From a virus: a DNA stretch of 64,000 nucleotides. The stretch lies in IMG/VR virus record IMGVR_UViG_3300030012_001696, positions 1 to 64,000 of that record. One strand, written 5' to 3'. Positions 9,505 through 39,133 of the stretch are shown one piece after another (position 1 is the first letter of the stretch; each line of letters begins with the position of its first letter). A model generated the notes under the pieces. It saw only the letters and a program-made list of their open reading frames with translations, had not been told where the DNA came from and did no database searches. The position numbers and the translations under genes were made by a program.

Positions 9505-11072
9505 GCTACTATCCAACTTTTTGCTTTACGTTTTGGTTTATACCATTTTGGTTTATCTGTTCCATTGTTTGCATAATTAGGCGGAAATGCGTGTAAATTT
9601 GCATAATAAAGTGCTTCAATTGTGTCATCATGCGCCATTCTTGGTCCGAAAGTTACAATTTCGTTAACCAAATCAAACATATTTTCCCTTAAATATAATG
9701 AACCTACAGAAAAAATGCCAGATAAACCTGAATAAATTCTGTTTCTTTTTTGTTGTCCACCTGGTTTTTCAGGTATTACAGCTATATCATAACGATTAAT
9801 TCTTCTTCTTTCATCATTTAATGCTTGAAGAATACTACGATTCATAGCAACATCTTCTACTGTAGCTTGTTTACAATTATATTTTTTATACAACTCAATA
9901 ATATAATCTACTACACCTTTTTTATCTATAATGTTTCCATCAACATCTTTTGCTCCTAATGTAGGAATACTACGATGACGTTCATATTCTAATACATAAC
10001 GATTATTATTTGCATCAACTGCAATTACCATAATTACACTAAAGTCTGCATTTTTTGTATTAATGTCTGTTGCTGGGTCGCATCCAATAAAAGTATTTAC
10101 AGGAGTTTGTACACCATCAATATTAATATATCCTTGACTTTCGCTTTCATTATAATCGTAATAACCTTCCCAATATTTTACGTGTTTTCTACCCCAAACT
10201 GAATCTTCTTCAGATTGTACTTCCATCATATATTCTTGATAAAATTTACTAGGCGTTCCACTATCTTGATAAAACTTTTTCTTTTCTTCTAATTTAGATA
10301 TAGGAAACCAACTATCCCATAATGACGTTCCATCTGGTTGAATTGCTTTATAAGTAATTACTCTCCACGCAAAATCATCTTTGCTTTTTTTACTACGTTC
10401 ATAATTAATGATGAGGTTATTGATAAAGCTATCATAGTGCACAGGAGTGCCATTGACCCGAAGACGACCAGTATGAGGCTCAATAGCAGGATAAACAACA
10501 GCAGTAACGAGATTGCTATTCTTAGCCCGTGCTTCAGCTGTAATAGTATTTGCTTCGTGTTCAAAGTCGTCAAGAATGATGAGGTCGTATCTTTTGTGTA
10601 ATTTAGCACCCCCTCTAATACCCGCAACATTCGATTTACTAATAAGTTTACATCCATTGGCTAACTCCACATCTTCTTCTGTCCATTTTTTTCCCTTCAA
10701 ACTACCAAAGTAGTATTTTATTTTTTCATTGTATTCAAAGTGGTACTTAATATAATCCATATTACCAGTACTTAATTTTTGTGTTGCTGATACCCAAGCG
10801 TAAAACAACATATCGTCTTTTGGACAAAAACAAAAATCTTTAATAATAGAACATTTAGTTAACACAGTTTTTCCGTGTCCTCTAGGTAAAATAACAGCTA
10901 ATTGTTTTACACTATTATCATCAATAGCATCAGCCATTTCGTAATGGAATGGAGGTGTTTCACTCCTCATGAAATCATCGGGAAGAAAAAGTTTACCAAA
11001 AGCTATTAAGTCTTTACTTGCTAGTTTTAGTGCTTTTTCTGCTTTGCTTACGTTGTTCTTGTTTATGTTCAT
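9501..11072 (-). CDS. terL: Terminase large subunit
   Basis: A 523-residue packaging motor. The ATPase domain has the Walker A variant P63-RGHGKT-69 and the Walker B LIILD168-D169-FEHEA. The C-terminal nuclease domain shows GCD332-PATD, the first acidic residue of the RNase H-like site, and a later MAHDDTIEALYYA block. Length is normal. The N-terminus overlaps the 75-residue gene upstream by 59 bases. Together with the portal it pumps DNA into capsids and cuts concatemers. Several short frames on the other strand inside this gene are shadows. Confidence 0.95.
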   Translation of the reverse strand: MNINKNNVSKAEKALKLASKDLIAFGKLFLPDDFMRSETPPFHYEMADAIDDNSVKQLAVILPRGHGKTVLTKCSIIKDFCFCPKDDMLFYAWVSATQKLSTGNMDYIKYHFEYNEKIKYYFGSLKGKKWTEEDVELANGCKLISKSNVAGIRGGAKLHKRYDLIILDDFEHEANTITAEARAKNSNLVTAVVYPAIEPHTGRLRVNGTPVHYDSFINNLIINYERSKKSKDDFAWRVITYKAIQPDGTSLWDSWFPISKLEEKKKFYQDSGTPSKFYQEYMMEVQSEEDSVWGRKHVKYWEGYYDYNESESQGYINIDGVQTPVNTFIGCDPATDINTKNADFSVIMVIAVDANNNRYVLEYERHRSIPTLGAKDVDGNIIDKKGVVDYIIELYKKYNCKQATVEDVAMNRSILQALNDERRRINRYDIAVIPEKPGGQQKRNRIYSGLSGIFSVGSLYLRENMFDLVNEIVTFGPRMAHDDTIEALYYANLHAFPPNYANNGTDKPKWYKPKRKAKSWIVA

Positions 11073-13935: not shown

Positions 13936-14118
13936 CTATTTCTTTTTCTTTGGTACTTTCTTTTTCTTTAACTCGGCAGCTGCTCGTTCTTTTTCAGCTA
14001 AAATATCTAAGACAGCTTCTTCAAGCATCTCTTGTTCTCTTTGTTCAGCTAATTCAGCTTCTCGTCTAGCTACACCAGTTAAACCAGTCTTTTCTAAGTC
14101 TTTAGTTGTATACGTCAT
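13936..14118 (-). CDS. Hypothetical charged small protein
   Basis: A 60-residue, almost entirely helical, charged protein (EAELAEQREQEMLEEAVLDILAEKERAAAELKKK) ending in a Lys cluster. It is the most upstream gene of this minus-strand block and faces the early region divergently. Ribosome-binding sequence is poor. It could be a small coiled-coil factor; function unknown. Confidence 0.55.
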   Translation of the reverse strand: MTYTTKDLEKTGLTGVARREAELAEQREQEMLEEAVLDILAEKERAAAELKKKKVPKKKK

Positions 14119-14235
14119 AATATAACTTATGTATAACCCATGTTATTTCCAAGAAAAAATATAGCATTTTGAAATGGACCTATATACACACACCCTACCC
14201 CCCTTCGGTGGGTTTCGGTTTTTGTAGTTTACGTT
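14119..14235. promoter_or_regulatory. Divergent intergenic region
   Basis: This gap separates minus-strand late genes from plus-strand early genes and should hold divergent promoters. I find no good sigma70-type -35/-10 pair on either strand. It contains an imperfect C/G-rich hairpin with a UUCG loop near 14197-14212, followed on the plus strand by GTTTCGGTTTTT, which looks terminator-like although it precedes an early gene. Lack of host-type promoters would fit transcription by a phage polymerase. Confidence 0.4.
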
Positions 14236-14544
14236 ATGAGTGAAAATATATCTCAAGACCTAGTAAATGATGTGCCTAGTGAAGTAAAAGAACTTGTTAA
14301 TGACTTAACAAAGAAGTACTTTGCGAATGCTCAGCAGATTACTAAGATGCAAGCTATGGGTGTTAGAACCAAGATTCAACCATGGCAATTATCAAGTCAG
14401 TTCAAAGCAGACATTCAATTAGTTACTCAAGAACTTACTCGTTTCTACATGACACCTCAGCGTGTTAATGACAATGAGTCAAGACTGAGCACTCTTGAAA
14501 GTAAGCTAGACTCACTGATAGATGCATTGAAGCCGCCTAAATAA
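14236..14544 (+). CDS. First early gene, hypothetical
   Basis: A 102-residue protein (MSENISQDLVNDVPSEVKELV...), helical, with a C-terminal heptad stretch NDNESRLSTLESKLDSLIDAL. The ATG at 14236 has no Shine-Dalgarno sequence in front, unlike nearly all its neighbours, so it may be translated from a short leader. It is the first gene on the plus strand. Not recognised; an early regulator is possible. Confidence 0.6.
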   Translation: MSENISQDLVNDVPSEVKELVNDLTKKYFANAQQITKMQAMGVRTKIQPWQLSSQFKADIQLVTQELTRFYMTPQRVNDNESRLSTLESKLDSLIDALKPPK

Positions 14545-14549
14545 GCGGA

Positions 14550-14694
14550 GGTCCCAAGTTTTAGGGTTGTACTTGGTTAATCAACAGCCCTAACCTATCT
14601 AACTCTCTACTCTTTGAAGTTATAGTTACTTAGGTTTTTAGAATTATCTACTATTAATATTAACATATGGCAGTAGATTGTGAGTAGAGGGACC
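14550..14694 (+). ncRNA. Structured RNA candidate with closing stem
   Basis: Nested, compatible inverted repeats: GGTCCC 14550-14555 with GGGACC 14689-14694; a 10-pair hairpin TTAGGGTTGT 14561-14570 with ACAGCCCTAA 14584-14593 (one G-U); CTCTACTC 14605-14612 with GAGTAGAG 14682-14689; and ATCTACT 14646-14652 with AGTAGAT 14672-14678. Together they give a branched fold closed by its ends. No reading frame of note overlaps. It could be the 3' end or leader of an early transcript. Strand is assumed from the neighbouring genes. Confidence 0.55.
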
Positions 14695-14703
14695 ATAATA
14701 GTC

Positions 14704-14727
14704 GTATTATCGGAGGAGAGGTAATAC
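14704..14727 (+). promoter_or_regulatory. Hairpin presenting GGAGGAGA in its loop
   Basis: GTATTATC (14704-14711) pairs fully with GGTAATAC (14720-14727, one G-U), leaving an eight-base loop GGAGGAGA. The loop is a strong match to the anti-Shine-Dalgarno end of 16S rRNA, yet no reading frame starts at a usable distance. It may be a ribosome stand-by or decoy element, or a protein-binding hairpin. Confidence 0.5.
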
Positions 14728-14909
14728 CCGCATATATATACACATTATGTGGATAACATGGGGATAAACATAAATCCTCTTTAAAGAGCTTCTGTAATAA
14801 CTATCACGACGTCGTAGCTTACCGAAAGGTTGAAGCGGTCAATATAGTTAGAATACGGCTATTATAGACATATTCTGAATAAACATATAACTATGAAATG
14901 GAGTGAACT
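14728..14909 (+). other. Non-coding early segment with short hairpins
   Basis: No frame longer than a few codons. It holds a palindrome CTCTTTAAAGAG (14777-14788) and a small ACC-GAAA-GGT hairpin near 14821-14830. AT-rich stretches follow up to the ribosome-binding site GGAG before 14910. Possibly a continuation of the structured leader. Confidence 0.4.
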
Positions 14910-15083
14910 ATGACTAAAGAAGTAATAAAAGAAATTGGTAATGTATTAACTAGTGGTTATCTTAACAATAATAAAGTGTTTACTATCTTATCTTTATTAG
15001 TGGCGAATGGTGACGCTAATGCGGATATGAACATGGAGGAAATTGATAGAGTCCTTCGTGAGCATTTTACTATCAAAAACTAA
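14910..15083 (+). CDS. Small early protein (57 aa)
   Basis: A 57-residue frame, MTKEVIKEIGNVLTSGYL..., preceded by GGAGTG seven bases before the ATG. Composition is ordinary protein-like with two helices and no low-complexity stretch. Too short for most gene finders. It lies between structured non-coding segments. Function unknown. Confidence 0.6.
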   Translation: MTKEVIKEIGNVLTSGYLNNNKVFTILSLLVANGDANADMNMEEIDRVLREHFTIKN

Positions 15084-15188
15084 ATTATGAGGGAGTAGGT
15101 AGAGCGACTAAGCAATCATTATATATACCATTAGTTAGTTCACTTCTCCTACTTCCTTATATTAATCTATAACTTACATGGAGGTCCT

Positions 15189-15341
15189 ATGTATATTAGA
15201 TTAGAAAAGTCCTTTAATGACTATCTTAGGATAAGTTATGAAGGCAATGGTATGTGGTATTATCGTTGGAATGGTCTAGTTCCAAATGATAATGTTGATA
15301 CCTGGACTATGATTGATGTAGTCCTAGCCTTTCTTAAATGA
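15189..15341 (+). CDS. Small early protein (50 aa)
   Basis: A 50-residue frame, MYIRLEKSFNDYLRISYEGNG..., with a strong GGAGGT eight bases upstream. It is rich in aromatic residues (GMWYYRWNG) and looks like a small folded domain. It directly precedes the long structured non-coding stretch. Not recognised. Confidence 0.6.
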   Translation: MYIRLEKSFNDYLRISYEGNGMWYYRWNGLVPNDNVDTWTMIDVVLAFLK

Positions 15342-15790
15342 AGGGCTTTAGAAAAAGTTTTCGTTTACTCAACGATGTCTAGAGTCGGGTGTATATGCTC
15401 GTTACATAAAACTCAGAAATGAGTATAAAGTCAGAAATGGCGACATTATCTTCGGATAGTGTTTATGTATAAAATTGGAATATCAATTATGGCGTACAGA
15501 TTCTCTCCTCGGTGAAAGCCAGGGTTTATCTAGATGTAATTGACTAGCACGATAGGGGTGTTAGTTGAGTTGGAAACAGCAATAAGAAAATCCAAAAGAT
15601 AATGAGTTAAGTGTCGTTGCGGTACTTGTTATCAGTCAGCATAGGTGAATGTCGTAGAAATACACAATCATCGTAGCTAGGACTACTTAAAACTCTAGAT
15701 AACGACTAGAGACGGTAGGAAGTACTTATACTATTCACTTCTCAAAAGGAAGTGAGGTATATAATTTTGTGCGGTACTTTCACATGACCC
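15342..15790 (+). ncRNA. Large structured RNA candidate 1
   Basis: About 450 bases without a credible frame but packed with hairpins. A clear three-way junction spans 15403-15469: closing stem TACATAAA/TTTATGTA (15403-15410 with 15462-15469), ACTCA-GAAA-TGAGT (15411-15424), and a seven-pair stem with a C(UUCG)G tetraloop (15444-15461). Further on are GGT-GAAA-GCC (15511-15520), CTCTAG/CTAGAG (15693-15711), and a long irregular hairpin 15727-15761 enclosed by AAGTAC/GTACTT (15720-15725 with 15774-15779). GNRA and UUCG loops are typical of stable RNA. It may be a giant ornate RNA of the GOLLD/ROOL kind, but I cannot match a known family. Confidence 0.6.
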
Positions 15791-15796
15791 TTACTT

Positions 15797-15805
15797 TGCT
15801 ATAAT
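15797..15805 (+). promoter_or_regulatory. Extended -10 promoter TGCTATAAT
   Basis: A perfect extended -10 element, TG-N-TATAAT. The upstream -35 position (CTTTCA, 15777-15782, 17-base spacer) matches the consensus poorly, as is common for extended -10 promoters. Transcription would begin near 15812, two bases before the first strand of the long closing stem of the downstream RNA. This is the best host-type promoter seen in the window. Confidence 0.65.
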
Positions 15806-15811
15806 ATACAA

Positions 15812-16271
15812 ACGTATTAACGTAAAAACTAATATCAAGCATATATAACAAAAGGAAAAGTCACAAAACGTTTTAAATCAAAAATGTTCTTGTTGTTGTC
15901 TGAAATACGATAGCTTCTAGTTGCCCCCAAAGCGCTAGAAAATTGACAAACAGCCAAGTTGGTCTAATTAACCATTAGTTGGAGCGGTAGCTTCGGATTG
16001 AGCTTAGTAGTCGGTTAACAGATTAAAACGATAAGAGTGATTAGCTATACTAATTGAACATGACATCGCAGTATGTAGGCAACTATAACTGGATAAAAGA
16101 CTTAAGGGTAGAAATCCGTACGGGTCTCAAGGAGATGTTGGTAAAGGTGTAATCTCAACCTTTGCAATACTTACTCAAAGAATTATTTGATGGTATATTA
16201 ATGTGTTGATTTCCCAAAGTATATTTTATACGTTAATATCTACAACATTTGTTAGTGATTGTAGTGTTTTT
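15812..16271 (+). ncRNA. Large structured RNA candidate 2 (about 460 nt)
   Basis: A non-coding unit with its own promoter and terminator-like end. The 5' end, GTATTAACGTA (15814-15824), pairs over 11 positions (one G-U) with TACGTTAATAT (16229-16239), closing a domain of about 400 bases. Inside are TTCTAG/CTAGAA (15915-15940), a nested CCAA/TTGG plus CTAAT/ATTAG hairpin (15954-15982), AGAC/GTCT (16098-16127), and GTAAAGGT/ACCTTTGC (16141-16165). End-to-end closing stems are typical of large ornate phage RNAs. The one frame over its end (minus strand, 16277-16465) is a shadow. Family unknown. Confidence 0.62.
16240..16271 (+). terminator. Intrinsic terminator-like hairpin
   Basis: CTACAA (16240-16245) pairs with TTGTAG (16259-16264), followed by TGTTTTT. 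It lies directly behind the 3' strand of the long closing stem of the structured RNA and is a natural end for that transcript. The stem is short, so readthrough is likely. Confidence 0.45.
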
Positions 16272-16440
16272 CGTATTTAACTGAGCAATAGCAAAAAAGC
16301 AGACGGATAGAAACGGCAACAGTTATTATATCTGGATAATGGAAGTGAGGTGATGAGCCGCATTCTAATCACATAAATACTAATGTAGGTTGAGCGTTGT
16401 AGTAAATACAGCGCAATACACCCTTTAAAGAAAGAAGGTG
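16272..16440 (+). ncRNA. Structured leader candidate
   Basis: Non-coding stretch before the next gene. It contains ATTAT/ATAAT (16325-16340), GTGAT/ATCAC (16350-16372), and an eight-pair hairpin GCGTTGTA-GTAAA-TACAGCGC (16394-16414, one G-U). The last hairpin ends about 20 bases before the ribosome-binding site AAGAAGG. It may be the 5' leader of the downstream gene or a tail of the upstream RNA region. Confidence 0.4.
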
Positions 16441-16443
16441 AAC

Positions 16444-16965
16444 ATGAAAGATTTATTAGCGCCATTTATACAAAGTGGTAGTCAAGGGTATGATACAGCA
16501 TTGAACTCTATGGCTTGGTGTAGAAGAACTAAAGATAAACATGGTAAAACATATTATATGGTAAAGTTTAGCGATAAATATTTATATCATATAACTCTTA
16601 ATGATTACTATGAAGATGCAATGAAAAAGTTTCACATTATGTGGGATGATACTATAATAGTAACAGATGAAGTTAAAGAATATAGAAAACATTATAAAAA
16701 TATACATACTATTCCACGTTATCAAATGTGGAGATTAGATAATAAAAAGTATACAAAAGTATCTTCCTTAAATTTACATGAAGACCAAAATGGTAGACCT
16801 TACTATTTTATACCAAAAACTAAAGTTATTCCATTTAAAACTGATATGAGATTTGTGCTGAAGAAAAATTATTATATATTTCATCAAGATATAAATAAAG
16901 ATGGAACTTTGAAAAATAAAGCGAGATTATGGTTTCCAGTGAAGCCATGGGCGTTTCAACCTTAA
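16444..16965 (+). CDS. Hypothetical early protein (173 aa)
   Basis: The preferred start is ATG 16444 (MKDLLAPFIQSGSQGYDTAL), with GAAGG in front; a GTG six bases earlier is less likely. Rich in Lys, Tyr and Trp, with no motif that I recognise. It begins the run of small plus-strand genes. Confidence 0.65.
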   Translation: MKDLLAPFIQSGSQGYDTALNSMAWCRRTKDKHGKTYYMVKFSDKYLYHITLNDYYEDAMKKFHIMWDDTIIVTDEVKEYRKHYKNIHTIPRYQMWRLDNKKYTKVSSLNLHEDQNGRPYYFIPKTKVIPFKTDMRFVLKKNYYIFHQDINKDGTLKNKARLWFPVKPWAFQP

Positions 16966-18183: not shown

Positions 18184-18933
18184 ATGATAGACATACCAAA
18201 AATATATAACGAATACTTGCAACGTAAAAGTGTAGAAAACCGTAAGAAATATAAGAAATATAAAGGATGGTTTTCAGCTAGTAGCGCAGGTAGTTGTTAT
18301 AGAAAACAATTACATAGAAGACAAGACTTAGAGCTTGACCCTATGGATGAAAAGAGTGCTAGACTTCTAAGATTAGGTACATTAGTACACGCTGATTTCG
18401 AAGAAGCACTAAAAGAATTTGACATTGAAGAACGTGTAGACAAACCAGATGAGATTCAAGTACTAACAGAACATAGAATAGAAATACCAGAACTCATGGT
18501 TGTAGGACACTTAGATGTTGGTGTAGTAAACCTAGAAGGTGAAATGATACATGTATATGATATTAAAACCGCAGGTGCTTGGAAATGGCGTATGAAATTT
18601 GGTAGAAATCCAGACAAAAATCCAAGTGTAAACTATGAATTACAATTAGCTACTTATGCGATAGGATTAGGTAATGAAAAAGATATTACTGATTTAAGAC
18701 TATCTATTATGTGGTACAATAAAGACAATTCAATGATGCGTGAAGAAAAGATTAGTGAATTATATCTTGAAGAAGCGTTTGATTATTGGACAGATTTAAA
18801 TGAAACTTCTGATAGTGTTGCAGGTAAACCTGAAGAACTGAATCCAGGTGAACAGAATGTACCAGTATATAATTGGGAATGTAAATATTGTGAGTTTCAG
18901 GGTAAATATTGTCCTGGATTGTATAATATTTAG
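18184..18933 (+). CDS. Cas4/RecB-like PD-(D/E)XK exonuclease
   Basis: A 249-residue nuclease. Motifs visible: H69, D111 in GHLD, the D126-x-K128 pair (YDIKTA), and Q154-x3-Y158. Four cysteines, C38 near the N-terminus and C233-x2-C236-x6-C243 at the end, match the iron-sulphur cluster of Cas4/AddB-type nucleases. It probably produces single-stranded ends for the annealing protein encoded four genes on. Start ATG 18184 has AGGAGG in front. Confidence 0.85.
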   Translation: MIDIPKIYNEYLQRKSVENRKKYKKYKGWFSASSAGSCYRKQLHRRQDLELDPMDEKSARLLRLGTLVHADFEEALKEFDIEERVDKPDEIQVLTEHRIEIPELMVVGHLDVGVVNLEGEMIHVYDIKTAGAWKWRMKFGRNPDKNPSVNYELQLATYAIGLGNEKDITDLRLSIMWYNKDNSMMREEKISELYLEEAFDYWTDLNETSDSVAGKPEELNPGEQNVPVYNWECKYCEFQGKYCPGLYNI

Positions 18934-27676: not shown

Positions 27677-30431
27677 GTATTTCATTGATATTTTGTTTTG
27701 GCTTACCTTTAGATTTTTTCTTTTTTTCAGGTAAGTCAGGCAAATAATCGCCAACTAATCTATCTGCACCTTTGTATAAATTACGTAATCTTTCTTTTTG
27801 AGCTCTTGTATCTTTATTTGGAAACAGACCAAGTTCTCCTTGTACTAACACACCAAGATTAACACCTTTACTCATTCTAGGAAATGTATTTGTATATGCA
27901 CGATGCACTTGTGTATTTAATAATCTTATAACTTCTTGGAATTTTTCATTACCATCTTTTTCAGATTCGTCTTGATAACCAACTAAATAAGATAACATAT
28001 CATCTTCTTCTAATTCATATAAACCAGATAAATTTCCAATTGTAATTAAGTCTGATATAGTAGGACCACCAGCTGTACCAATAATAGGACCTTTACCAAA
28101 GAAAGCATCTTTTCTACGTTCTGGGTCATCTGATTGAAATGCATCACGATAATTTTTAAATCTTTCCCATGTATCGTTTTGTACAAGATTACCAAAGTTT
28201 GCATTTAATATAGGAGAAATTAATCCATTAATAGTAGCATACATAATACCTAATCTATACATTCTCCAACCAGCTGCGCTATTCCATTGTCCAGCAAATA
28301 TAGCATCTTTTGCATCTAAAGCAATTTTACGTTGTAGATTAAAAAAGTTTACACCATAGTGTTGAAATTGTCCAATAACCGCACCAGTAGGTGTAGTTAA
28401 AAATTTATTTTTACCAGTTAAACTATAATCAAAATGCAAGTTTTCAACTGCGGCATTACCTGCGTTATCAGCTAATTTTCTTTTATACATTTCTAATTCT
28501 ACTTCATATACAGTAGCATCCTTTTCTTTAAATATAGTTTCTGTTTTATTTCTATCAGCTTTAAGTCTTTCTACAGATAGATTAGCATTAGAAGCTACCA
28601 TTAATCTTTCTTTATCTTTGCCTTTAGCTTTTTTAATTTTTCTTTCTAAATGTCTATCAAATTTTGATACAAAGTTAGGGTCAGCACTCATTAATTTCCA
28701 TTGACTTGTATATCCTATTTTATATGTAAATCTTCTATTAATATTATTTTCTACAAATTCCATAGGTTTACCAGATATTCTAGCAACTTCTTCTAATTTA
28801 TTTTGCAATGATTGTCCTAAACTATTATCAATTTGTAATTTTATAGTACCAGATTTTTTATCAAAATATCTATTATATGGCAAAGCTCCATATATTTCTT
28901 GGAACTCAGGAAATAAAATACCATTATTTTCTAAACCTTGTTGTACTCTAGTTTGCATTTCTTTATTATTTAACATTCTGTTTGTATCTAATATACCTTT
29001 ACTACCAAACCATATATAATTAAACAAACTTTGTGTAGCGTTTCTAGCAGCTGCACGGAAGTTTAAACCAAGTTTACTTAAGAATTGATAAGATGTAAGC
29101 GTTCTAGCTAAGTTAGCACCACCAGCATCTTTAAATCCACCAGATATAACGTCATAATGGTCTGATGCATAATTTTCTAAAAACTTTAGTTTAGCATCTA
29201 ACTCATACATTCCTTTATCGTTTTGTGCTTTTAACGCTACATCATTTATATTTTTAAGTAATTCACTATATTTTAATACATTAAAAGAAGTGTAATTAAA
29301 ACGATTAGCACTTCTAACATAACTATCTATAATAGGAATAACATTATAATTAATAGGACCATTGATTTGTTTATTAGTGTTACCTAAATGTTCATTAATA
29401 TAAGCGTTGTCAGAAAATATTTTATCAACACTTTTAATCATGTCAATAGCTTCTTGCCTTGTATCTCCTTTACTACTGTATAACAATTCAGAAGCTCTAG
29501 ATAAAGTAGGCATAATATCAAATGTTAATACAGGAAAATATCCATCTTTTTGTAATTGTTTAGATTCATATTTTTTAATAATATTATCTAAAATACCAGT
29601 ATTTTCTTTATTAGTTAAATCTTTAGCTCCTTCTATATCTCTAAATTGAGACATACTTTTTCTAATACCATTTCTAAAATTTCTAATCCCTTGCATAATT
29701 CTTTGTTGCGCAACAGGTTGAATGTTTCTTCTATAAATAGTAGCAGCTTCATATATATTAGCATCGTATTTACCTAAGCTACTATCAAAGTCATTACTTT
29801 TCATTGTAACAAGTTCATGAAACTCTCTCAAAGCACGACCTTCGCCTTTTTGAATAAATTTATCTATTTCTGCGTAAGTATTAATTGCTTCTTCGTGTAA
29901 ACCTTTTTGTCTTTGTTTATTATAAGTAGCATATAATTTTCTTATGTCTGCCTGTGCTGATTTAAAATCATATCCATATCTAGCAGAAGCTTCTTTAAGA
30001 TTACGCATTACTGATGCTATTTGTGAGTCAAAATATTGACCAAATCCTTTTTGTTGGTAATTAGAATTTTGTACATCTTGATACCATTTTTCTACAAAAG
30101 GTATATCTTTATATATTTCTTTTGGTAAGTATAACCATTTTGCAAAAAAGCCTCTTTTTCTTGTTATATTTTTTAATTCTCTATCTCTAATTCTTTTAAA
30201 AACTTTTAGTTCTTCAGCGTTCGGAACTTCGTGATAGCGTTTTGTGTTAAAACCATGAACAGCATCTCTAGAATGATTTAAGATTCTTCTAAACATAGCT
30301 ACTCTATTACTGTTTCCAAGTATCTGCATAATAGGTAAGTTTTGAAACTCTCTAGCAGTTTTCATAAAAACTTCTTCTTCTTTTTGTTTTTGAGGGTTAG
30401 GGTCTAATGGTATACAATCTGGTTTTATCAT
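27654..30431 (-). CDS. Large internal virion (ejection) protein
   Basis: About 925 residues from ATG 30431 (MIKPDCIPLDPN), which overlaps the polymerase-gene stop as ATGA and has AAGG ahead. It is helical, with amphipathic or hydrophobic stretches such as FRAAARNATQSLFNYIWFGS and GWRMYRLGIMYATINGLI, and a C-terminal block FGKGPIIGTAGGPTISDLITIGNLSG that recurs, from memory, at the end of very large proteins in marine podoviruses. Size, position after the giant protein, and membrane-active helices point to a protein ejected with the DNA. No enzymatic motif found. Confidence 0.6.
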   Translation of the reverse strand: MIKPDCIPLDPNPQKQKEEEVFMKTAREFQNLPIMQILGNSNRVAMFRRILNHSRDAVHGFNTKRYHEVPNAEELKVFKRIRDRELKNITRKRGFFAKWLYLPKEIYKDIPFVEKWYQDVQNSNYQQKGFGQYFDSQIASVMRNLKEASARYGYDFKSAQADIRKLYATYNKQRQKGLHEEAINTYAEIDKFIQKGEGRALREFHELVTMKSNDFDSSLGKYDANIYEAATIYRRNIQPVAQQRIMQGIRNFRNGIRKSMSQFRDIEGAKDLTNKENTGILDNIIKKYESKQLQKDGYFPVLTFDIMPTLSRASELLYSSKGDTRQEAIDMIKSVDKIFSDNAYINEHLGNTNKQINGPINYNVIPIIDSYVRSANRFNYTSFNVLKYSELLKNINDVALKAQNDKGMYELDAKLKFLENYASDHYDVISGGFKDAGGANLARTLTSYQFLSKLGLNFRAAARNATQSLFNYIWFGSKGILDTNRMLNNKEMQTRVQQGLENNGILFPEFQEIYGALPYNRYFDKKSGTIKLQIDNSLGQSLQNKLEEVARISGKPMEFVENNINRRFTYKIGYTSQWKLMSADPNFVSKFDRHLERKIKKAKGKDKERLMVASNANLSVERLKADRNKTETIFKEKDATVYEVELEMYKRKLADNAGNAAVENLHFDYSLTGKNKFLTTPTGAVIGQFQHYGVNFFNLQRKIALDAKDAIFAGQWNSAAGWRMYRLGIMYATINGLISPILNANFGNLVQNDTWERFKNYRDAFQSDDPERRKDAFFGKGPIIGTAGGPTISDLITIGNLSGLYELEEDDMLSYLVGYQDESEKDGNEKFQEVIRLLNTQVHRAYTNTFPRMSKGVNLGVLVQGELGLFPNKDTRAQKERLRNLYKGADRLVGDYLPDLPEKKKKSKGKPKQNINEILRSLNNL

Positions 30432-33400
30432 GGACAATACCTTTTATTTTTCTTAATCATGTTACTTGCTTCATCTGTTACATCATATTTTCTTCTACTA
30501 GAAGAACCACTACCGCCTACGTTTCCTATTGGCTCAAATGGTCTTCTATAATCTACAATATGATTTACGCCATCTCTACGTACATATAATCTATTTTGTA
30601 AATCTAAACTATTCTCAAAATCTTTTATACCATTTATACTCATACGTCTAAAATCTCCTAAACCAGTTACGTCATAAAGACCACCAACTACACTATCTGG
30701 TGAGGTATCACGTAATTTAGGCAATAATTCTTGTACAGTTCCATATTTAAAATGTTTTACTAATAACTCATATGTACTTAATCTTGAAACACCAGCATAT
30801 TCTGGGTTAAATATTTGTACTAATTTACTTTTTTGGTGTCCCATAGCTGGAGAAAATATATCTACATAACCAGTATCTCCAGGAATAAAATCAGCATTAT
30901 TGTTTCTTGCTTGTTCACCAGTTCTTAATAATTGATTTGCATTAGAGTAATGTTTTCCTAATTCTTTTATAAATAATTTTTGCATTTCAGGGCTATCTTT
31001 AAACATTCTATTATTTACTCTTAAACCTAATGTAACAAATTTTTCTTGTCGTTTAGTTTCTGGTTTAGGAAATACTTTTCCTTTAAAAGTTATTAGTTTG
31101 TATGGTTCAATTCTAGGAGTCATAACCTTAGCTAAATAAACATTATTTAAACTTAAATCTCCTAATACAGACATTTCACCTAGCATTCTATTAGTAAAGT
31201 ACTCGTATATTTCTGCTGCATCAGAAAACTCTACAGGTTCCTTCATATCTTTAAATTGTACTTTTTCATTATTACGTAAAGAATACCAAGCTTGTTGAAA
31301 ATCTCTTCTTACATCTTGTGCATTTTTATTTAATTCAGAATATTCTTGTTTTCCTATACCTAAATCAAATTGTTTTAATTGACTATATCTACCAAAACCT
31401 TCTAACATAGCTAAAGAATGTATTAAATCTCTATCTGCATAAGGTTCAATGGTATATTTTTTATTTTTCATATCTTCTTTTGCTTCTGCTTTAATCTTTT
31501 TTAATTGTTCTTCTGAAGCTTCTTTTCCATTTTTTCTTATATAGTCTCTTAATTTGTCTACTACTAAATCATTTTCAATTTGTTTTAAAATACTTTCAGA
31601 AACAGGAATTTGTTTTTTTATTTCTTTTAAAAGATTTTCCAAATATAAAATATTTTTATTTAATCTATTTCTACTTGTAGGACTTTGTAATGTATCTTTT
31701 AAACGTTTCATTTTTCTTATTCTAGTATACAATGCATTAGCATATTCGTGTTTATTTCTTGAATAATCTATTTGATTTTCTAATGCTTTAGTTAAATTTT
31801 CGCTTATCATAAACTCATCTAATGTTTTATTATATTCTTCACTAGGTCTTGAATACAAATCTCTATCATTAATTTTTTGAGTAATGTTTCTAATATGCAT
31901 TATTTCTGATAATAATCTATCGTATGTCATAACACTACCACTAAAATCTGTACCATTTCTATTAGCTCTTATAATAGCATTATCACCAAATCCAAACAAA
32001 TCTATATCTGTTTGTTTTACGCCTAAATCTTTAGCCATATTAAATTGCAATGTTCTCATACTACTATTATATGTTTCTAAACCAGTTATCATATCTTGTA
32101 ATGATACGCTTTTTTGTCTACCTCTATCATATTGAAAGTTAGATAATCTTAATAAATCTGAATATGGAGTAAATAAATGTTCATAAATAACATCTTTTTC
32201 TTTTCCTGTTAAAGCGGCTACTCCTTCTTGTCCTTCTCTTTTTGATAAAATACTTGTTTTTAAATCTATTTCAGTACTTTGTTTACCTTCTGTAGTAGTT
32301 TTATATGCAATTTTATCTACACCATATACTTCAAAAATACCATCTTTTCCTAAAAATAAATCTTCATATATTGCTTTTCTTGATTGAAACAATCCATGAT
32401 TATATCCGTTGTAAGCATCTAATACATGTTGATTGTAGTCTGCAATTTTTTGATATACAGCTTTCATATCTAAATCTTGTTTAATAACTAAAAATCTATT
32501 ATCAGGTATTTTCATTATAAATCCATTAACTGTATCTATTTTACCTAATTCAGCTATAGTTCCATCTTCTTTCATAGTAGAATTTCTAGCTATTCTATAT
32601 TGAGTAGGTGAGTTAGCATAGTTATTTATTAACCATTGTAATAAACGTTGTGATTGCATAACAATACCTTTTGCAATATCTGATTGACGTAACTTATTAT
32701 GTATATAATCCATTCTAGTATCGTAATCTGTATATTTTAAATTAGCAAAACTCATTTCACTATTTGTAGTTTCAACATTTCTACTATCTGATATAACACC
32801 TCTATTATTCCAATATTCTTTCATAACATCATGTTTCATATTGTGGAAATAATTGATAGTGTCAATATCAAAATCACCTTCAGCCGCTCTTTTTAAATCT
32901 ACGGCATTAAGTTTTGCTACATTATCTGCGTTAAAGTTTTTTAAAGCTACTGGCATAATGCTAGAATGTTTTACGTGAGGTTGTCTTTCACCAATTATTA
33001 ATATTTTATATTCTGGGTGGTTAGCTTCTAACTTGTCAAATAATTCTCCTAAGTTTTTTATTTTTCCAAATCTATCTTTTACAACTGTATTAGCAGTTAC
33101 AATTGTATCAGCTTCACCTTTATTTTGTTTTACTAGAGTAATTAAATCTAAACTTTCAACACCTGTATTTCTTACAGATTCAGGTACAGATATTTCACCT
33201 GCTTGCCATATTTTTCCATCTAATATAATAGTGTTTTGAAGTTCTGCTTTTCCAAAAGCATTTATATCAGGAGCTAATACACTACTACCACCTTCTACTT
33301 TAGTTTTAAATAGAGGGTCAATTTCAAATGTTTTAAAAACAGCATCTAATCTTGTAGGTAGTAATCCAGGGTTTACATTTGCTTCAGCTAATAACGCATC

Positions 33401-36400
33401 TAAACCTAATGTTTCATTATTAAGTTCAGTAGTTCCTTCTTCATAAACTTTTTGTCTTTGCCATAATTTATATTGTGCAATAGCTTCAGCCTCTCTCATA
33501 GGGTCTGTAAATATTTCTGCATTATTTCTTACACGAGCTACTCTATCTCTAATAATATAATTATAAAATTCACCTACTGCATCTGGTGATAAATTAACTG
33601 TATGATTCAAACCTATTGCTGCTTTATTTTTATGTTCTTTAACACTTATTAGTTGCATATGTTCTGGGTTTAAAGCATTTGTTTGAGAAATATCTAACTC
33701 TTTTGCTTTAGCTGGAGTTATTTCGTTTCCTTTAGCATCTGTAACTGGAGGCTCAGACCATAAATCTTTACTTTCAATAGTTTTAATAGCATAGTTTTCT
33801 CCAATTTTTTTAGAAGCTGAAGTAAATGTTATACTAGCTACTCCTGGATTAGCGTCAAAAATCTTTTGTATTTCTGCGTTTTTCATAATAGCAGTTTTAT
33901 TAATAAAATAATTACTACCTTGTCTTAAAATAATAGGTTTAACACCGCTAACATCACCTAAATCTGTTTTACCTAATAATAAAGCTAATGCTTTCATTTT
34001 ATTTTCAGGCATAAAAGTAACACCATTAACATCACTAGCATCTGATACAGCGTCATTTCTTAATTCAGCTTGTTCTTTTGCTTTTAATTCTTGTAATTTA
34101 ACTATATCAGGGCTATTAGGATTAACTTCTCTTATAGCTTCTATAGCTCTATCATAAGCTTCTATTTGCTGTTTAACTACAGAGTGTATTTCATCTACTA
34201 ATTTACCTTCATATCCACCAGCTAATACTTCATCTGCTATAATTAATTGTCTCCATTTACCATCTGCAAAATCTTTTAATTCATTTCTTACTACTTTATC
34301 TTGAAGGCGAATACCAGGTTCATCTAAAAAATTAACAACATCATTTATGTCTTCTTTAGTAAATCTTTTTGCGCTTATGTTATCAAATAGTTTTAAACGT
34401 TTTACTAGTCCAGCAGAAGTTTTACCCTCTCCATTTCTTTGGTTACTCCACCATTCTTTTTTACCAAATAATTCTCCAACAATCATATCATTCAACATTA
34501 TATCTAATTCTTTTGTAGCTGTTTTATAATTATTAGAAAGAGAATCTTGTTTTAAAGTTTTCCATTCATAACGTGTTGTACCATCTGCTTGTGTTACTGG
34601 TTTTACATTTACTTTATCTAACAAGTCTTGTTTTTCTGCTGAGACAAGTTTATCTTTAATAACACTATCTAAATACTCAGCATATTTAGTTGCAATTCTA
34701 TTACCAACACTTGTGTCTTTTGGTATAAGATATAAATATTTGTTATCTCCATATTGATATGTTAAATATTTTTGATTTGTAGGAACTTCAGTTGGGTTCA
34801 TATTCATGTATCTATACATGTTATGAGAAGCTACATATTCTCCAGTATATAATAATCTTTGTGCTGTATTTAAAAATGATACATCATTAATACCTTTATA
34901 AAATCCTCCAAACCCTACACCTTGTGAATCTAATATGTGAATTGGCATATCAGCATTATCTGCAATCTCACTTAATCTTTCTATTACAATAGATTTTTTA
35001 ATTATTTCATTACTGAACGTAGCATTTTGAGTATTGTTAGCATTCATTACAATTCGTTTAGTATTATAATTACTTTTGCTATTTAACAAAAATGTCATAG
35101 TAGTTAATTCAATACTTTCTAAATCTCTTTTACTTAAATTAGGATTATTGTCAGTTAAGTCTTTCATAAAGTCTTTGGTGAAGTTTGTAATGTTTCCATT
35201 ATATCCACCTTGTGTAACTTCATCTAAAAATAACTTGTTTACATATTGACTATTACTTAAATCAACACCATTTTCTTTTGCACTAAATTTTTTAAATACG
35301 TTGTTGACTAATATTTGTTGTATGTCTGATATGTTATAATCATTTATAGTTAAACCTTCTTCTTTTAATAGTTGTCTATATAAAGAATTAATTTCTGTAT
35401 CTATTTCTTGAAACTTTGTAGTTTCTAACATTTTTTTCAAACGAGTTCTTAGTTCTAACCAAGTATTATTATTATACTCTTTAAAATCTTTTTTGTAAAA
35501 ATCATAAATTTTTAATTCAGTAGCTAATGAAACTAAATCTAATGCATCTCCTCTTCTACTAGCTTCTTTTATTGCGGCATAAAGATATTTTTTAGTTTTT
35601 AATTCTTCTTGTTTATCTAATATTTGTTTTTCAGTAAATGCTCCACGTTGTACAGATATATCAAATTGCATTAAATCTCTACTAATAGTATCCATTATTT
35701 CTGTAACAAAGTTTTGTTCTTTACCTAGCTTAATATCATTCATTGTTTGTAGTAATTGAACAGCATCTGCTTCAGTTATTACGGCTTTTTCAGTTGGACT
35801 AATTGTTACAAAACCACCTTTATCTGTTTTTATTAAAGGTCTCATTACTTCTTCTAATTCTTTAAATACTTGTTCTATATCAATATCTTTTCTTTGTTTA
35901 GATTCTATTAATTCTTTAAGTACCTCAACTTGAACTTCATTTAATCCATTAGATTCAGCGTTTTTTAATAACTCTTTTGCTTGTTCTACACTTAGTGTTG
36001 CATCTTTTGATATGTTATTAGCTTCTTTAAATGCTTCAATCTTTTTTATTGTATCCATACCACTTGCAATAAATCCTCTCATAGTGGTAGTGCCTGGTAT
36101 AATAAAACCTTTTTCTACTAGCTTAATATATTGATTAATATGAACATCAGTAATGTCAACTGGTTCTCCAGTTTTAGGGTCAATAACTTTAGCGCTAGAT
36201 ATTCTATCAAATAATATTTTTCTTTGTACATCATTAATAACTAATCTACCCTCACCAGCCCACTTAGTAACATTGTCAAATAATCTTATATCATTTCCAG
36301 GTTTAGAAAATTCATTTAATATATCTTTTGCTTCAGCTTGAGTAATTCTTTTATCAGCTACTGGTTTGTAATTAGAAGACAATACAGAACTACCAGATTC

Positions 36401-39133
36401 AGCAGCTCTAGCTAATTGTAATGCATAATTTATTTTTTCTTGAAGACTTCTAGGTACATTATCTCCTTTAATAGTAATTTTTTCTGGTAATCCTAAATCT
36501 TGTCCATTTTTGTTTACACGCAACAATGCGCTTAGTATAGGACTATTAGCAATAACATTACCTATTTCTTTACGTGCTTTACTAGATTCTCTATATGTGC
36601 TATTAAAATCTAATAATGCATTAATTTCTGGACTTTGTACTCTATAACCATGTTGGTCTTCTACCTTTAATATTTCATTTAATTTTCTTTGTCCGCTTAC
36701 TGCGTTTGAAATAAACTCTTCAAATGAACGAGGCATATTAGCTTCAGTAATTCTTATAGGAGCTTCATTAGCTTTTTGATGCATAGTAACTTCAGTAATT
36801 TTATCAACTAAATGATTGTATTCATTAATTTTATTAAGTATAACGTCTCCGTTAGGCATTGATGCTATTCTATTTGCTGATGTTCGTATGTCTATTTTTC
36901 TAAAAGTTTTAACTCCTGTTTCTGAATTTGTTTCTATAACTGGACCTGCGGTTTTTGCAATATCACCTTCAATACTATTTATCATATCTTCAGCAGTTTT
37001 TATAAAAGATGTTACAATATCATCTATAGTTTGATTATTTTTTTGATTGAACATTTCGTTCATTTTATCAAAACCTTTAGTATCAGCTTCAATACCTTTC
37101 TTTTTCATAAGCTCTACAAATGTTCTTTTTTGATTTGGAGTTAATTCACCCCATTCTTTAATAGATTTATTTTCACCAATGTATTGGTCTTTACTTAAAA
37201 ATACCATAGCATCATCATACAACTGTTTATTTTTTGCATCATTTTCTATAGGTTTGCTATCTACGTCTATATTTTGATTTTTATTTTTTATAAATATTCT
37301 ATTTTTTTGTTTACCTTCTCCTCTTTCTGTATTAATAACTTCATTAATAGCATCAAACACTTCAGGATTAGAATCTGTAGGTACAAAATCATGTTTTAAT
37401 TCGTTTTGTTTATGAACCATTTCACGAACTTTACCCCAATAACCCATACGAGGTCCACTCATATCACTACCAAGTGCTTGTACCCAGTTATCTACTTGTT
37501 GAAATTCTTTACTAAAACGATTTTGAGGTTTACGATTAAACGTTAATGCTCCTTCGTATGTTTTAAAAGCACCAGTATTAAAATCTTTGTATACTAAACC
37601 TTTACCATGTTTACTTAAAAAACCTCCAATTAACATAGACCTCATTTTATCTTGTACTGTTAAATTTTCATCCATTAACATTGAAGGTCCACCACCCATT
37701 ACTAAACCACCAAGGAACATACGAGGAGTACTACCAACTAAATCTTTTCTAACTTGTCTAGCAAATTCACCAGCCCATTCACCAGTTGTCATTTTAGAAT
37801 GAACTTTACTAATACTACGTTGCATAATTTGTGCAGCTATTTTCTTTTGTTCTGGAGTACCGCTTTGTAAATATTCTAATAATTTACTTGCACTTACACT
37901 AACAACTTTATCATCTTCTGTTCTAGTTAATTGTTTTAATAGACCTTGTAAATCTTTTGTTATATAATTTTCCATATAAAGTGGAGCAGCTTTACCTTGT
38001 TTACCTCCTACTCTACTACTACTTAATGCTAAATAAGAAAATATTTGACCAATAGAATTTTGACCAGAAGCTGAAGCAACATTATAATTATTTGCATAAG
38101 TTCCTCTAAATAACGCACCTATTCTTTCAAATGGATTTTTACCACGCATAAATGCACTTAATCCTGAAGCTCCTCCTTCTATACCTCCTGGTATAAATCT
38201 AACTGCTCCTAATGCGCCCCCTACAGCTAAAGCATGTAGTGTTGTATTCATAGGGTCATATTCAACTCCTTCTTGTCCAGCATCTAAAGCCGCAATTACA
38301 TTATCAACACCAGCAAATAAAATACCTTCTTCAGCCATATGCGTTAAAGCTAATCTTCCTGGTTTGTCATCTAATCCAAATACTTTTGCAAAATATCCTT
38401 GCAAGTTAGATACAGGTCTACCTCCAACGTCATCAATAGATTTTCTAACTAAATTACCTATTTGTTTAGCTGCGTCATCTGTAATAGAAATACCACTAGC
38501 TTCTGCAAATTCTTTAAATAATTTACCTGATTGGTCTTTTATGCTATCTAAAAACTCATTACGTAATTTTGCATTATGTAAAACATCATCAAAACCTTCA
38601 ATTTGTGTTTTAATTTTAGGAGTAATAATATCATCAATAAATCCTTTAGGAGTTAAATCATCAGCTAAATTAGCTGTAGTAGGCATAGTTCCTTTACCTA
38701 TTTTTATAGAACCATCATCAATTAATTTTGTAACTAGTCCATCAGCTTCTTTTTGAATTTCTTTAACTATTTTTTGACCACTTGCTTTACCAGCTGCAGC
38801 TCTACCTATTGCACTAATACCTATTTTACCAGCACCAAATGGTGCTAAAAATCCAAGAGCTGAACCAATGTCTCCACCCCATTTTTGTACTTCAGTTTCT
38901 CTTTTAGCTTCATAAAAAGGGTCTACTCCAAGTCTAGGTAATCCTCTTTCTGGTATTCCTAATAGCGCCATATTAACACCACCTTTTACAGCTTCTGTTG
39001 TAAAATCAAATATGTTAGAACCTAATCGTTCAAACATAGTTTTATCTGTATCAAATTGTGTGTTGTTATTAACTTGGGAATATTGGTCCCCAAAACGTTC
39101 ACGCATCTTTTTTTCAATGCTACTTTGTGGCAT
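30428..39133 (-). CDS. Giant virion protein with RNA polymerase catalytic barrel
   Basis: A 2901-residue protein. The first about 450 residues resemble an ejection protein, with Gly/Ala-rich hydrophobic stretches (near 88-110 and 290-320). Residues about 1770-2110 look like a single-chain RNA polymerase core: TFTSASK1775-K and SVK1832-EHKNKAAIG in the beta-like barrel position, then ER2050-QPHVKHSSIM and 37 residues later GD2087-FDID2091. In cellular beta-prime/Rpb1 the same order reads NRQP.LHK.SMM then NADFDGD at 35 residues. The three aspartates would hold the catalytic magnesium. Giant virion polymerases of this kind are known from crAss-like phages; N4 uses an unrelated one. It lies among ejection genes, so it is probably injected to transcribe early genes. 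Confidence 0.78.
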   Translation of the reverse strand: MPQSSIEKKMRERFGDQYSQVNNNTQFDTDKTMFERLGSNIFDFTTEAVKGGVNMALLGIPERGLPRLGVDPFYEAKRETEVQKWGGDIGSALGFLAPFGAGKIGISAIGRAAAGKASGQKIVKEIQKEADGLVTKLIDDGSIKIGKGTMPTTANLADDLTPKGFIDDIITPKIKTQIEGFDDVLHNAKLRNEFLDSIKDQSGKLFKEFAEASGISITDDAAKQIGNLVRKSIDDVGGRPVSNLQGYFAKVFGLDDKPGRLALTHMAEEGILFAGVDNVIAALDAGQEGVEYDPMNTTLHALAVGGALGAVRFIPGGIEGGASGLSAFMRGKNPFERIGALFRGTYANNYNVASASGQNSIGQIFSYLALSSSRVGGKQGKAAPLYMENYITKDLQGLLKQLTRTEDDKVVSVSASKLLEYLQSGTPEQKKIAAQIMQRSISKVHSKMTTGEWAGEFARQVRKDLVGSTPRMFLGGLVMGGGPSMLMDENLTVQDKMRSMLIGGFLSKHGKGLVYKDFNTGAFKTYEGALTFNRKPQNRFSKEFQQVDNWVQALGSDMSGPRMGYWGKVREMVHKQNELKHDFVPTDSNPEVFDAINEVINTERGEGKQKNRIFIKNKNQNIDVDSKPIENDAKNKQLYDDAMVFLSKDQYIGENKSIKEWGELTPNQKRTFVELMKKKGIEADTKGFDKMNEMFNQKNNQTIDDIVTSFIKTAEDMINSIEGDIAKTAGPVIETNSETGVKTFRKIDIRTSANRIASMPNGDVILNKINEYNHLVDKITEVTMHQKANEAPIRITEANMPRSFEEFISNAVSGQRKLNEILKVEDQHGYRVQSPEINALLDFNSTYRESSKARKEIGNVIANSPILSALLRVNKNGQDLGLPEKITIKGDNVPRSLQEKINYALQLARAAESGSSVLSSNYKPVADKRITQAEAKDILNEFSKPGNDIRLFDNVTKWAGEGRLVINDVQRKILFDRISSAKVIDPKTGEPVDITDVHINQYIKLVEKGFIIPGTTTMRGFIASGMDTIKKIEAFKEANNISKDATLSVEQAKELLKNAESNGLNEVQVEVLKELIESKQRKDIDIEQVFKELEEVMRPLIKTDKGGFVTISPTEKAVITEADAVQLLQTMNDIKLGKEQNFVTEIMDTISRDLMQFDISVQRGAFTEKQILDKQEELKTKKYLYAAIKEASRRGDALDLVSLATELKIYDFYKKDFKEYNNNTWLELRTRLKKMLETTKFQEIDTEINSLYRQLLKEEGLTINDYNISDIQQILVNNVFKKFSAKENGVDLSNSQYVNKLFLDEVTQGGYNGNITNFTKDFMKDLTDNNPNLSKRDLESIELTTMTFLLNSKSNYNTKRIVMNANNTQNATFSNEIIKKSIVIERLSEIADNADMPIHILDSQGVGFGGFYKGINDVSFLNTAQRLLYTGEYVASHNMYRYMNMNPTEVPTNQKYLTYQYGDNKYLYLIPKDTSVGNRIATKYAEYLDSVIKDKLVSAEKQDLLDKVNVKPVTQADGTTRYEWKTLKQDSLSNNYKTATKELDIMLNDMIVGELFGKKEWWSNQRNGEGKTSAGLVKRLKLFDNISAKRFTKEDINDVVNFLDEPGIRLQDKVVRNELKDFADGKWRQLIIADEVLAGGYEGKLVDEIHSVVKQQIEAYDRAIEAIREVNPNSPDIVKLQELKAKEQAELRNDAVSDASDVNGVTFMPENKMKALALLLGKTDLGDVSGVKPIILRQGSNYFINKTAIMKNAEIQKIFDANPGVASITFTSASKKIGENYAIKTIESKDLWSEPPVTDAKGNEITPAKAKELDISQTNALNPEHMQLISVKEHKNKAAIGLNHTVNLSPDAVGEFYNYIIRDRVARVRNNAEIFTDPMREAEAIAQYKLWQRQKVYEEGTTELNNETLGLDALLAEANVNPGLLPTRLDAVFKTFEIDPLFKTKVEGGSSVLAPDINAFGKAELQNTIILDGKIWQAGEISVPESVRNTGVESLDLITLVKQNKGEADTIVTANTVVKDRFGKIKNLGELFDKLEANHPEYKILIIGERQPHVKHSSIMPVALKNFNADNVAKLNAVDLKRAAEGDFDIDTINYFHNMKHDVMKEYWNNRGVISDSRNVETTNSEMSFANLKYTDYDTRMDYIHNKLRQSDIAKGIVMQSQRLLQWLINNYANSPTQYRIARNSTMKEDGTIAELGKIDTVNGFIMKIPDNRFLVIKQDLDMKAVYQKIADYNQHVLDAYNGYNHGLFQSRKAIYEDLFLGKDGIFEVYGVDKIAYKTTTEGKQSTEIDLKTSILSKREGQEGVAALTGKEKDVIYEHLFTPYSDLLRLSNFQYDRGRQKSVSLQDMITGLETYNSSMRTLQFNMAKDLGVKQTDIDLFGFGDNAIIRANRNGTDFSGSVMTYDRLLSEIMHIRNITQKINDRDLYSRPSEEYNKTLDEFMISENLTKALENQIDYSRNKHEYANALYTRIRKMKRLKDTLQSPTSRNRLNKNILYLENLLKEIKKQIPVSESILKQIENDLVVDKLRDYIRKNGKEASEEQLKKIKAEAKEDMKNKKYTIEPYADRDLIHSLAMLEGFGRYSQLKQFDLGIGKQEYSELNKNAQDVRRDFQQAWYSLRNNEKVQFKDMKEPVEFSDAAEIYEYFTNRMLGEMSVLGDLSLNNVYLAKVMTPRIEPYKLITFKGKVFPKPETKRQEKFVTLGLRVNNRMFKDSPEMQKLFIKELGKHYSNANQLLRTGEQARNNNADFIPGDTGYVDIFSPAMGHQKSKLVQIFNPEYAGVSRLSTYELLVKHFKYGTVQELLPKLRDTSPDSVVGGLYDVTGLGDFRRMSINGIKDFENSLDLQNRLYVRRDGVNHIVDYRRPFEPIGNVGGSGSSSRRKYDVTDEASNMIKKNKRYCP

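What the first reader, a model, noticed from the sequence alone, without database searches (positions are those of the whole stretch)
15403..15469. Compact three-way junction with GAAA and UUCG loops
An eight-pair closing stem, a five-pair hairpin capped by GAAA and a seven-pair hairpin capped by C(UUCG)G stack with almost no unpaired bases at two of three junction corners. Such precision is not expected by chance and marks 15342-15790 as RNA-coding. It continues with more hairpins up to 15779, directly before the promoter of the next RNA, so there are probably two adjacent RNA genes.
Basis: seen in the sequence. Interest (0 to 1): 0.68.

Follow-up and report, generated by a model that had tools for sequence, protein, structure and literature searches.

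The report
Cap-domain junction of phage GOLLD RNA
The folded RNA element is real, but it is one piece of an 800-base phage RNA of a known kind (GOLLD, which builds hollow RNA-only cages); the fresh surprise is that closely related phages carry different, unnamed RNAs at the same genome site instead.

Summary
The helices at 15403-15469 exist as described, but the junction is four-way, not three-way: the 19 "unpaired" bases hold a fourth arm (15430-15441) that is 7-10 pairs long in relatives. Fourteen homologous loci show 19 of 40 pairs with changes on both sides (shuffles 11.4, slid controls 2-6). The two named hairpins and the missed arm covary. The eight-pair closing stem does not: two of its pairs exist only in the window and its nearest relatives.

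The element is not one of two adjacent RNA genes. An Rfam GOLLD match (15718-16161, 136.3 bits, E 2.5e-37, full model; curated cut-off 150) and a continuous family match (15359-16160) run through the proposed boundary. A covariance model of the 5' element, built only from this marine clade, also hits canonical GOLLDs (294 and 284 bits) at the right place. So this is the 5' (cap) domain of a divergent GOLLD RNA in a tRNA-free marine phage.

In relatives the same site carries GOLLD or unnamed conserved non-coding modules, never both (18 versus 21 contigs, at least 7 switches on a tree). One module, about 230 nt, covaries and has no Rfam match. The mechanism (cap of an RNA nanocage) is inferred by homology.

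The parts
15359..16161 (+). GOLLD RNA, whole (about 802 nt)
   Evidence: nhmmer with a profile of 14 GOLLDs from this clade: one continuous match 15359-16160 (the window is one of the 14, and the same profile gives continuous full-length matches in the other loci); Rfam RF02032 for the 3' part
15359..15717 (+). GOLLD 5' (cap) domain
   Evidence: alignment across relatives, covariation, link to canonical GOLLD 5' domains
15361..15385 (+). H-type pseudoknot: 15361-15364/15372-15375 and 15367-15370/15382-15385
   Evidence: two-sided changes in both stems (GGU/ACC versus CGU/ACG; ACUC/GAGU, AUUC/GAAU, ACUG/CAGU)
15386..15401 (+). 5-bp hairpin CGGGU-GUAUAU-GCUCG
   Evidence: 100% of cells paired, two pairs with two-sided change
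   Evidence: fold; closing stem has no two-sided change and its two middle pairs are lineage-specific
15411..15424 (+). GNRA-capped hairpin (GAAA here, GCAA in some relatives)
   Evidence: all 5 pairs have two-sided changes, 100% of cells paired
15425..15429 (+). invariant single-stranded AUAAA at the junction
   Evidence: invariant in 14 of 14 clade sequences and kept in L015/L016
   Evidence: 5 of 7 pairs with two-sided change
15444..15461 (+). UUCG-capped hairpin CAUUAUC-UUCG-GAUAGUG
   Evidence: covaries (C-G/U-A, U-A/C-G, U-A/A-U); UUCG also in L073, L074, L122, L015 and L016
15650..15665 (+). GAAA hairpin late in the 5' domain, candidate counterpart of env-38 L11a
   Evidence: GAAA loop kept in all aligned relatives except L083; the L11a match is inference from PMC12286853
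15718..16161 (+). GOLLD 3' domain (RF02032, model positions 1-416)
   Evidence: 136.3 bits, E 2.5e-37; curated cut-off 150
   Evidence: alignment; tRNAs sit inside the 3' match in L065 and L189

Best explanation
15403-15469 is a four-way junction in the 5' domain of a single GOLLD non-coding RNA (about 15359-16161) made by a tRNA-free marine phage. [quoted passage not shown] The junction would set the arms' geometry; the GNRA loop and the invariant AUAAA are the likely docking points. Shown here: family membership, fold and covariation. Inferred: oligomer, cage, docking contacts. Unknown: what the cage does for the phage.
For: Full-length RF02032 match at E 2.5e-37. GOLLD in 18 of the 44 related contigs at the same site. 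5' element: 90.6% of cells paired, 19 of 40 pairs with two-sided change versus 11.4 in shuffles and 2-6 in slid controls; 22 of 35 in the wider set. Model R1, built only from this clade's 5' element, hits L015 and L016 (E 2.4e-6, 2.9e-6), which carry canonical GOLLD 3' domains of 294 and 284 bits about 280 nt downstream and a Met-tRNA just upstream. Separate 5' cap and 3' ring domains, junction A-minors and a conserved GAAA loop are described for GOLLD env-38 (PMC12286853).
Against: The score is below Rfam's curated cut-off (136.3 versus 150). Oligomerisation is not tested for this clade. Rfam-based searches missed L052 although it is 97% identical to L051, so scores near the limit are erratic. 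The closing stem is not supported by compensatory change. No expression data.
Confidence: 0.8

Rival explanations
1. Two adjacent RNA genes, the first at 15342-15790 and a second with its own promoter near 15790.
For: A TGCTATAAT box at about 15800 in the window and its two nearest relatives.
Against: One continuous conserved unit of about 780-830 nt in every complete relative; the Rfam GOLLD domain begins at 15718, before the proposed boundary; the box is absent from the other clade members apart from one differently placed match; promoter-like sites are not in excess.
Confidence: 0.04
2. A divergent GOLLD that keeps the fold but works as a monomer or a differently sized oligomer, because quaternary contacts differ in this clade.
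For: Score below the curated cut-off; the CUCGCAAGG loops of canonical GOLLDs are replaced in this clade; the third arm is shortened in the window lineage.
Against: GNRA loop, junction adenosines and overall two-domain layout are kept.
Confidence: 0.14
3. A cis-acting leader or processing element of the early operon rather than a trans-acting RNA.
For: Lies between co-oriented small ORFs and downstream genes; no terminator found after 16161.
Against: An 802-nt GOLLD-type fold with two covarying domains is far more than a leader; GOLLD occurs in unrelated gene contexts.
Confidence: 0.05

Closest known systems
GOLLD RNA (Rfam RF02032; env-38 cryo-EM structure, PMC12286853)
   Same: Full-length conserved 3' domain; 5' domain with the same junction element in canonical members L015/L016; variable linker; about 800 nt; phage-encoded.
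   Different: Below the curated cut-off; no tRNA in the linker and none found in the 71.6-kb record or in 32 related loci; 8-bp closing stem and shortened third arm in the window lineage.
ROOL RNA
   Same: Large phage RNA that forms an RNA-only cage (PMC12286853).
   Different: No ROOL match in the window; the sequence and structure matched here are GOLLD.

Membership tests
GOLLD (RF02032) | Complete conserved 3' domain | tested here: met
   Model 1-416 of 416, E 2.5e-37, 136.3 bits; note that this is below the curated annotation cut-off of 150
GOLLD (RF02032) | Less conserved, separately folded 5' domain upstream on the same RNA | tested here: met
   R1 also hits canonical GOLLDs
GOLLD (RF02032) | Variable linker near the start of the 3' domain | tested here: met
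GOLLD (RF02032) | Length of about 800 nt | tested here: met
   About 802 nt; env-38 is 833 nt (PMC12286853)
GOLLD (RF02032) | Near tRNA genes (frequent association, not obligatory and not defining) | tested here: not met
   No tRNA in the window or the rest of the record. The source paper says 'often near tRNA islands', so this does not exclude membership
GOLLD (RF02032) | Homo-oligomeric RNA-only cage | not testable with these tools
   Needs biophysics
ROOL | Match to the ROOL covariance model | tested here: not met
   No match in the whole-window Rfam scan or in the permissive scan of 14100-16500

The most novel reading that the evidence does not exclude
The site is an exchangeable RNA cassette: GOLLD and at least two unnamed conserved non-coding modules (X, about 230 nt, structured; Y, about 350 nt) replace one another at the same position in closely related phages and never co-occur, so X and Y may be functional stand-ins for GOLLD, and X a new RNA class that does the same job at about a quarter of the length.
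Probability: 0.35. Interest if true: 0.72.

Novelty: new member of a known kind. Interest (0 to 1): 0.46.

Why it matters
GOLLD's function is an open question. This clade gives GOLLDs in phages without detected tRNA genes, which argues that the cage does not serve phage tRNAs alone, and a natural swap experiment: near-identical phages (flanks 86-96% identical) with GOLLD or with a small unnamed RNA at the same site. That makes the function testable by allele exchange and comparative phenotype.

Tried and rejected
Rfam at gathering threshold: nothing in the window. BLASTN of 14545-16450 against annotated phages: no match. Protein-coding reading of 15342-16161: longest open stretch 42 codons. 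DnaA-box origin idea: TTATCCACA at 14748-14756 is not enriched in the window (5 found, 5.4 expected), though it lies in a stretch conserved in most relatives. Using RF02032 hits to call absence: rejected after it missed L052; a clade profile was used instead. RNAalifold alone: it drops the closing stem and pairs columns 139-142 with 152-155 of A2 instead, an alternative that is not excluded in relatives. A match of module X to known families: none up to E 10, and none in genome contigs for its core pattern.

Full report
Observation. The segment folds with z = -4.84, but 0.9% of all 67-nt windows in the sequence fold as well, so energy alone does not prove function. The junction is therefore four-way.

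Identity. A permissive Rfam scan finds GOLLD (RF02032) at 15718-16161 on the same strand, full model, E 2.5e-37, 136.3 bits against a cut-off of 150; at the curated threshold it is missed. RF02032 has 416 positions, about half of a GOLLD of about 830 nt, and covers the conserved 3' region only. The element under study lies in the 5' half. Searches with the exonuclease ORF 18184-18933 gave 44 related viral loci; GOLLD lies at the same site in many of them, always as one continuous unit of about 780-830 nt when the locus is complete. This removes the 'two adjacent RNAs' reading: the proposed boundary falls inside the GOLLD unit, and the promoter-like box lies in its variable linker and is not conserved.

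Comparative structure. Fourteen distinct sequences of 15360-15486 were aligned. With the structure named (40 pairs including an H-type pseudoknot), 90.6% of cells are paired, 19 pairs have two-sided changes (shuffled mean 11.4; slid controls 2-6), and the covariation score is 0.339 against 0.134 shuffled. The GNRA hairpin covaries at all five pairs, the missed third arm at five of seven, the pseudoknot in both stems. The UUCG hairpin covaries as well. The closing stem does not: its two middle pairs are paired only in the window lineage, and it has no two-sided change. With the covariance model R1 the set grows to 21 distinct rows with 22 of 35 pairs showing two-sided change; that alignment is fitted to the structure and so leans towards it. 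The rest of the 5' domain and the start of the 3' domain also fold with covariation, 33 of 60 pairs.

Independent link to canonical GOLLD. R1 was built only from this marine clade. It nevertheless hits L015 and L016 at E about 2e-6, and these records carry GOLLD 3' domains at 294 and 284 bits about 280 nt downstream on the same strand, with a Met-tRNA upstream. The solved env-38 GOLLD was likewise found downstream of a Met-tRNA (PMC12286853). The 5' element is thus a shared part of GOLLD, not a local invention.

Mechanism. [quoted passage not shown] adenosines at a 5'-domain junction make A-minor contacts, and a GAAA loop faces the inner circle (PMC12286853). By homology the junction described here is part of such a cap. 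This is inference; no oligomer test could be run. I could not map stem numbers onto the solved structure.

A site that exchanges RNAs. In loci L021-L064 that span the site, GOLLD is present in 18 contigs and one of two other conserved module types (X or Y) in 21; none has both; L040 does not reach far enough, and L060-L063 have neither. X is about 230 nt with a long closing stem (AUUAAAAUACG...CGUAUUUUAAU), 66 predicted pairs of which 16 have two-sided changes, stops in all frames and no Rfam match up to E 10. In L206 (the same contig as L092), whose flanks match the window at 86-96%, X stands where the window has 15167-16429, which is the small ORF 15189-15341 plus GOLLD. On a tree of the neighbouring terminase small subunit the GOLLD label needs at least 7 changes (at least 4 forced by well-supported branches). 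Y is conserved and has no Rfam match, but I did not test its covariation. Recombination or site-specific exchange could explain the swap without any shared function. The mutual exclusion may also follow simply from both occupying one slot.

Limits. All records are metagenomic; host unknown; the closest annotated TerL is about 24% identical. No expression data. Absence calls rest on a clade profile that would miss very distant GOLLDs.

Noticed in passing
L047:4591-4825, L030:4382-4607, L039:4059-4285, L046:4395-4626, L206:1739-1965 (minus strand), L205:about 10018-10262: Module X: unnamed structured RNA of about 230 nt with covariation, no Rfam match, found in 19 viral contigs by pattern; occupies the GOLLD site in GOLLD-less relatives.
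   Followed up: yes
L046:4029-4380, L044:4135-4472, L054:4612-4881, L056:2964-3231: Module Y: another conserved, apparently non-coding module of about 350 nt at the same site, no Rfam match; also exclusive with GOLLD.
   Followed up: partly
L039:3761-4050, L043:3748-4043: Module Z: a further conserved, apparently non-coding stretch just upstream of module X in the L037-L043 group, with partial copies elsewhere.
   Followed up: partly
L070 (same contig as L002) versus window 15360-15486: L070 combines the pseudoknot type of the L072 group with the junction type of the window lineage: a sign of recombination inside the 5' domain.
   Followed up: no
window 14724-14769: Stretch with a perfect DnaA-box-like TTATCCACA (14748-14756), conserved in most relatives, close to the divergent-transcription and GC-skew switch; possible origin or early promoter.
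   Followed up: partly
window 15089-15155: Inverted repeat GGGAGTAGG...CCTACTTCC just upstream of GOLLD or module X in close relatives; possible edge of the exchange site.
   Followed up: no
window 30428-39133: Giant 2901-aa ORF with no match in annotated phages.
   Followed up: no
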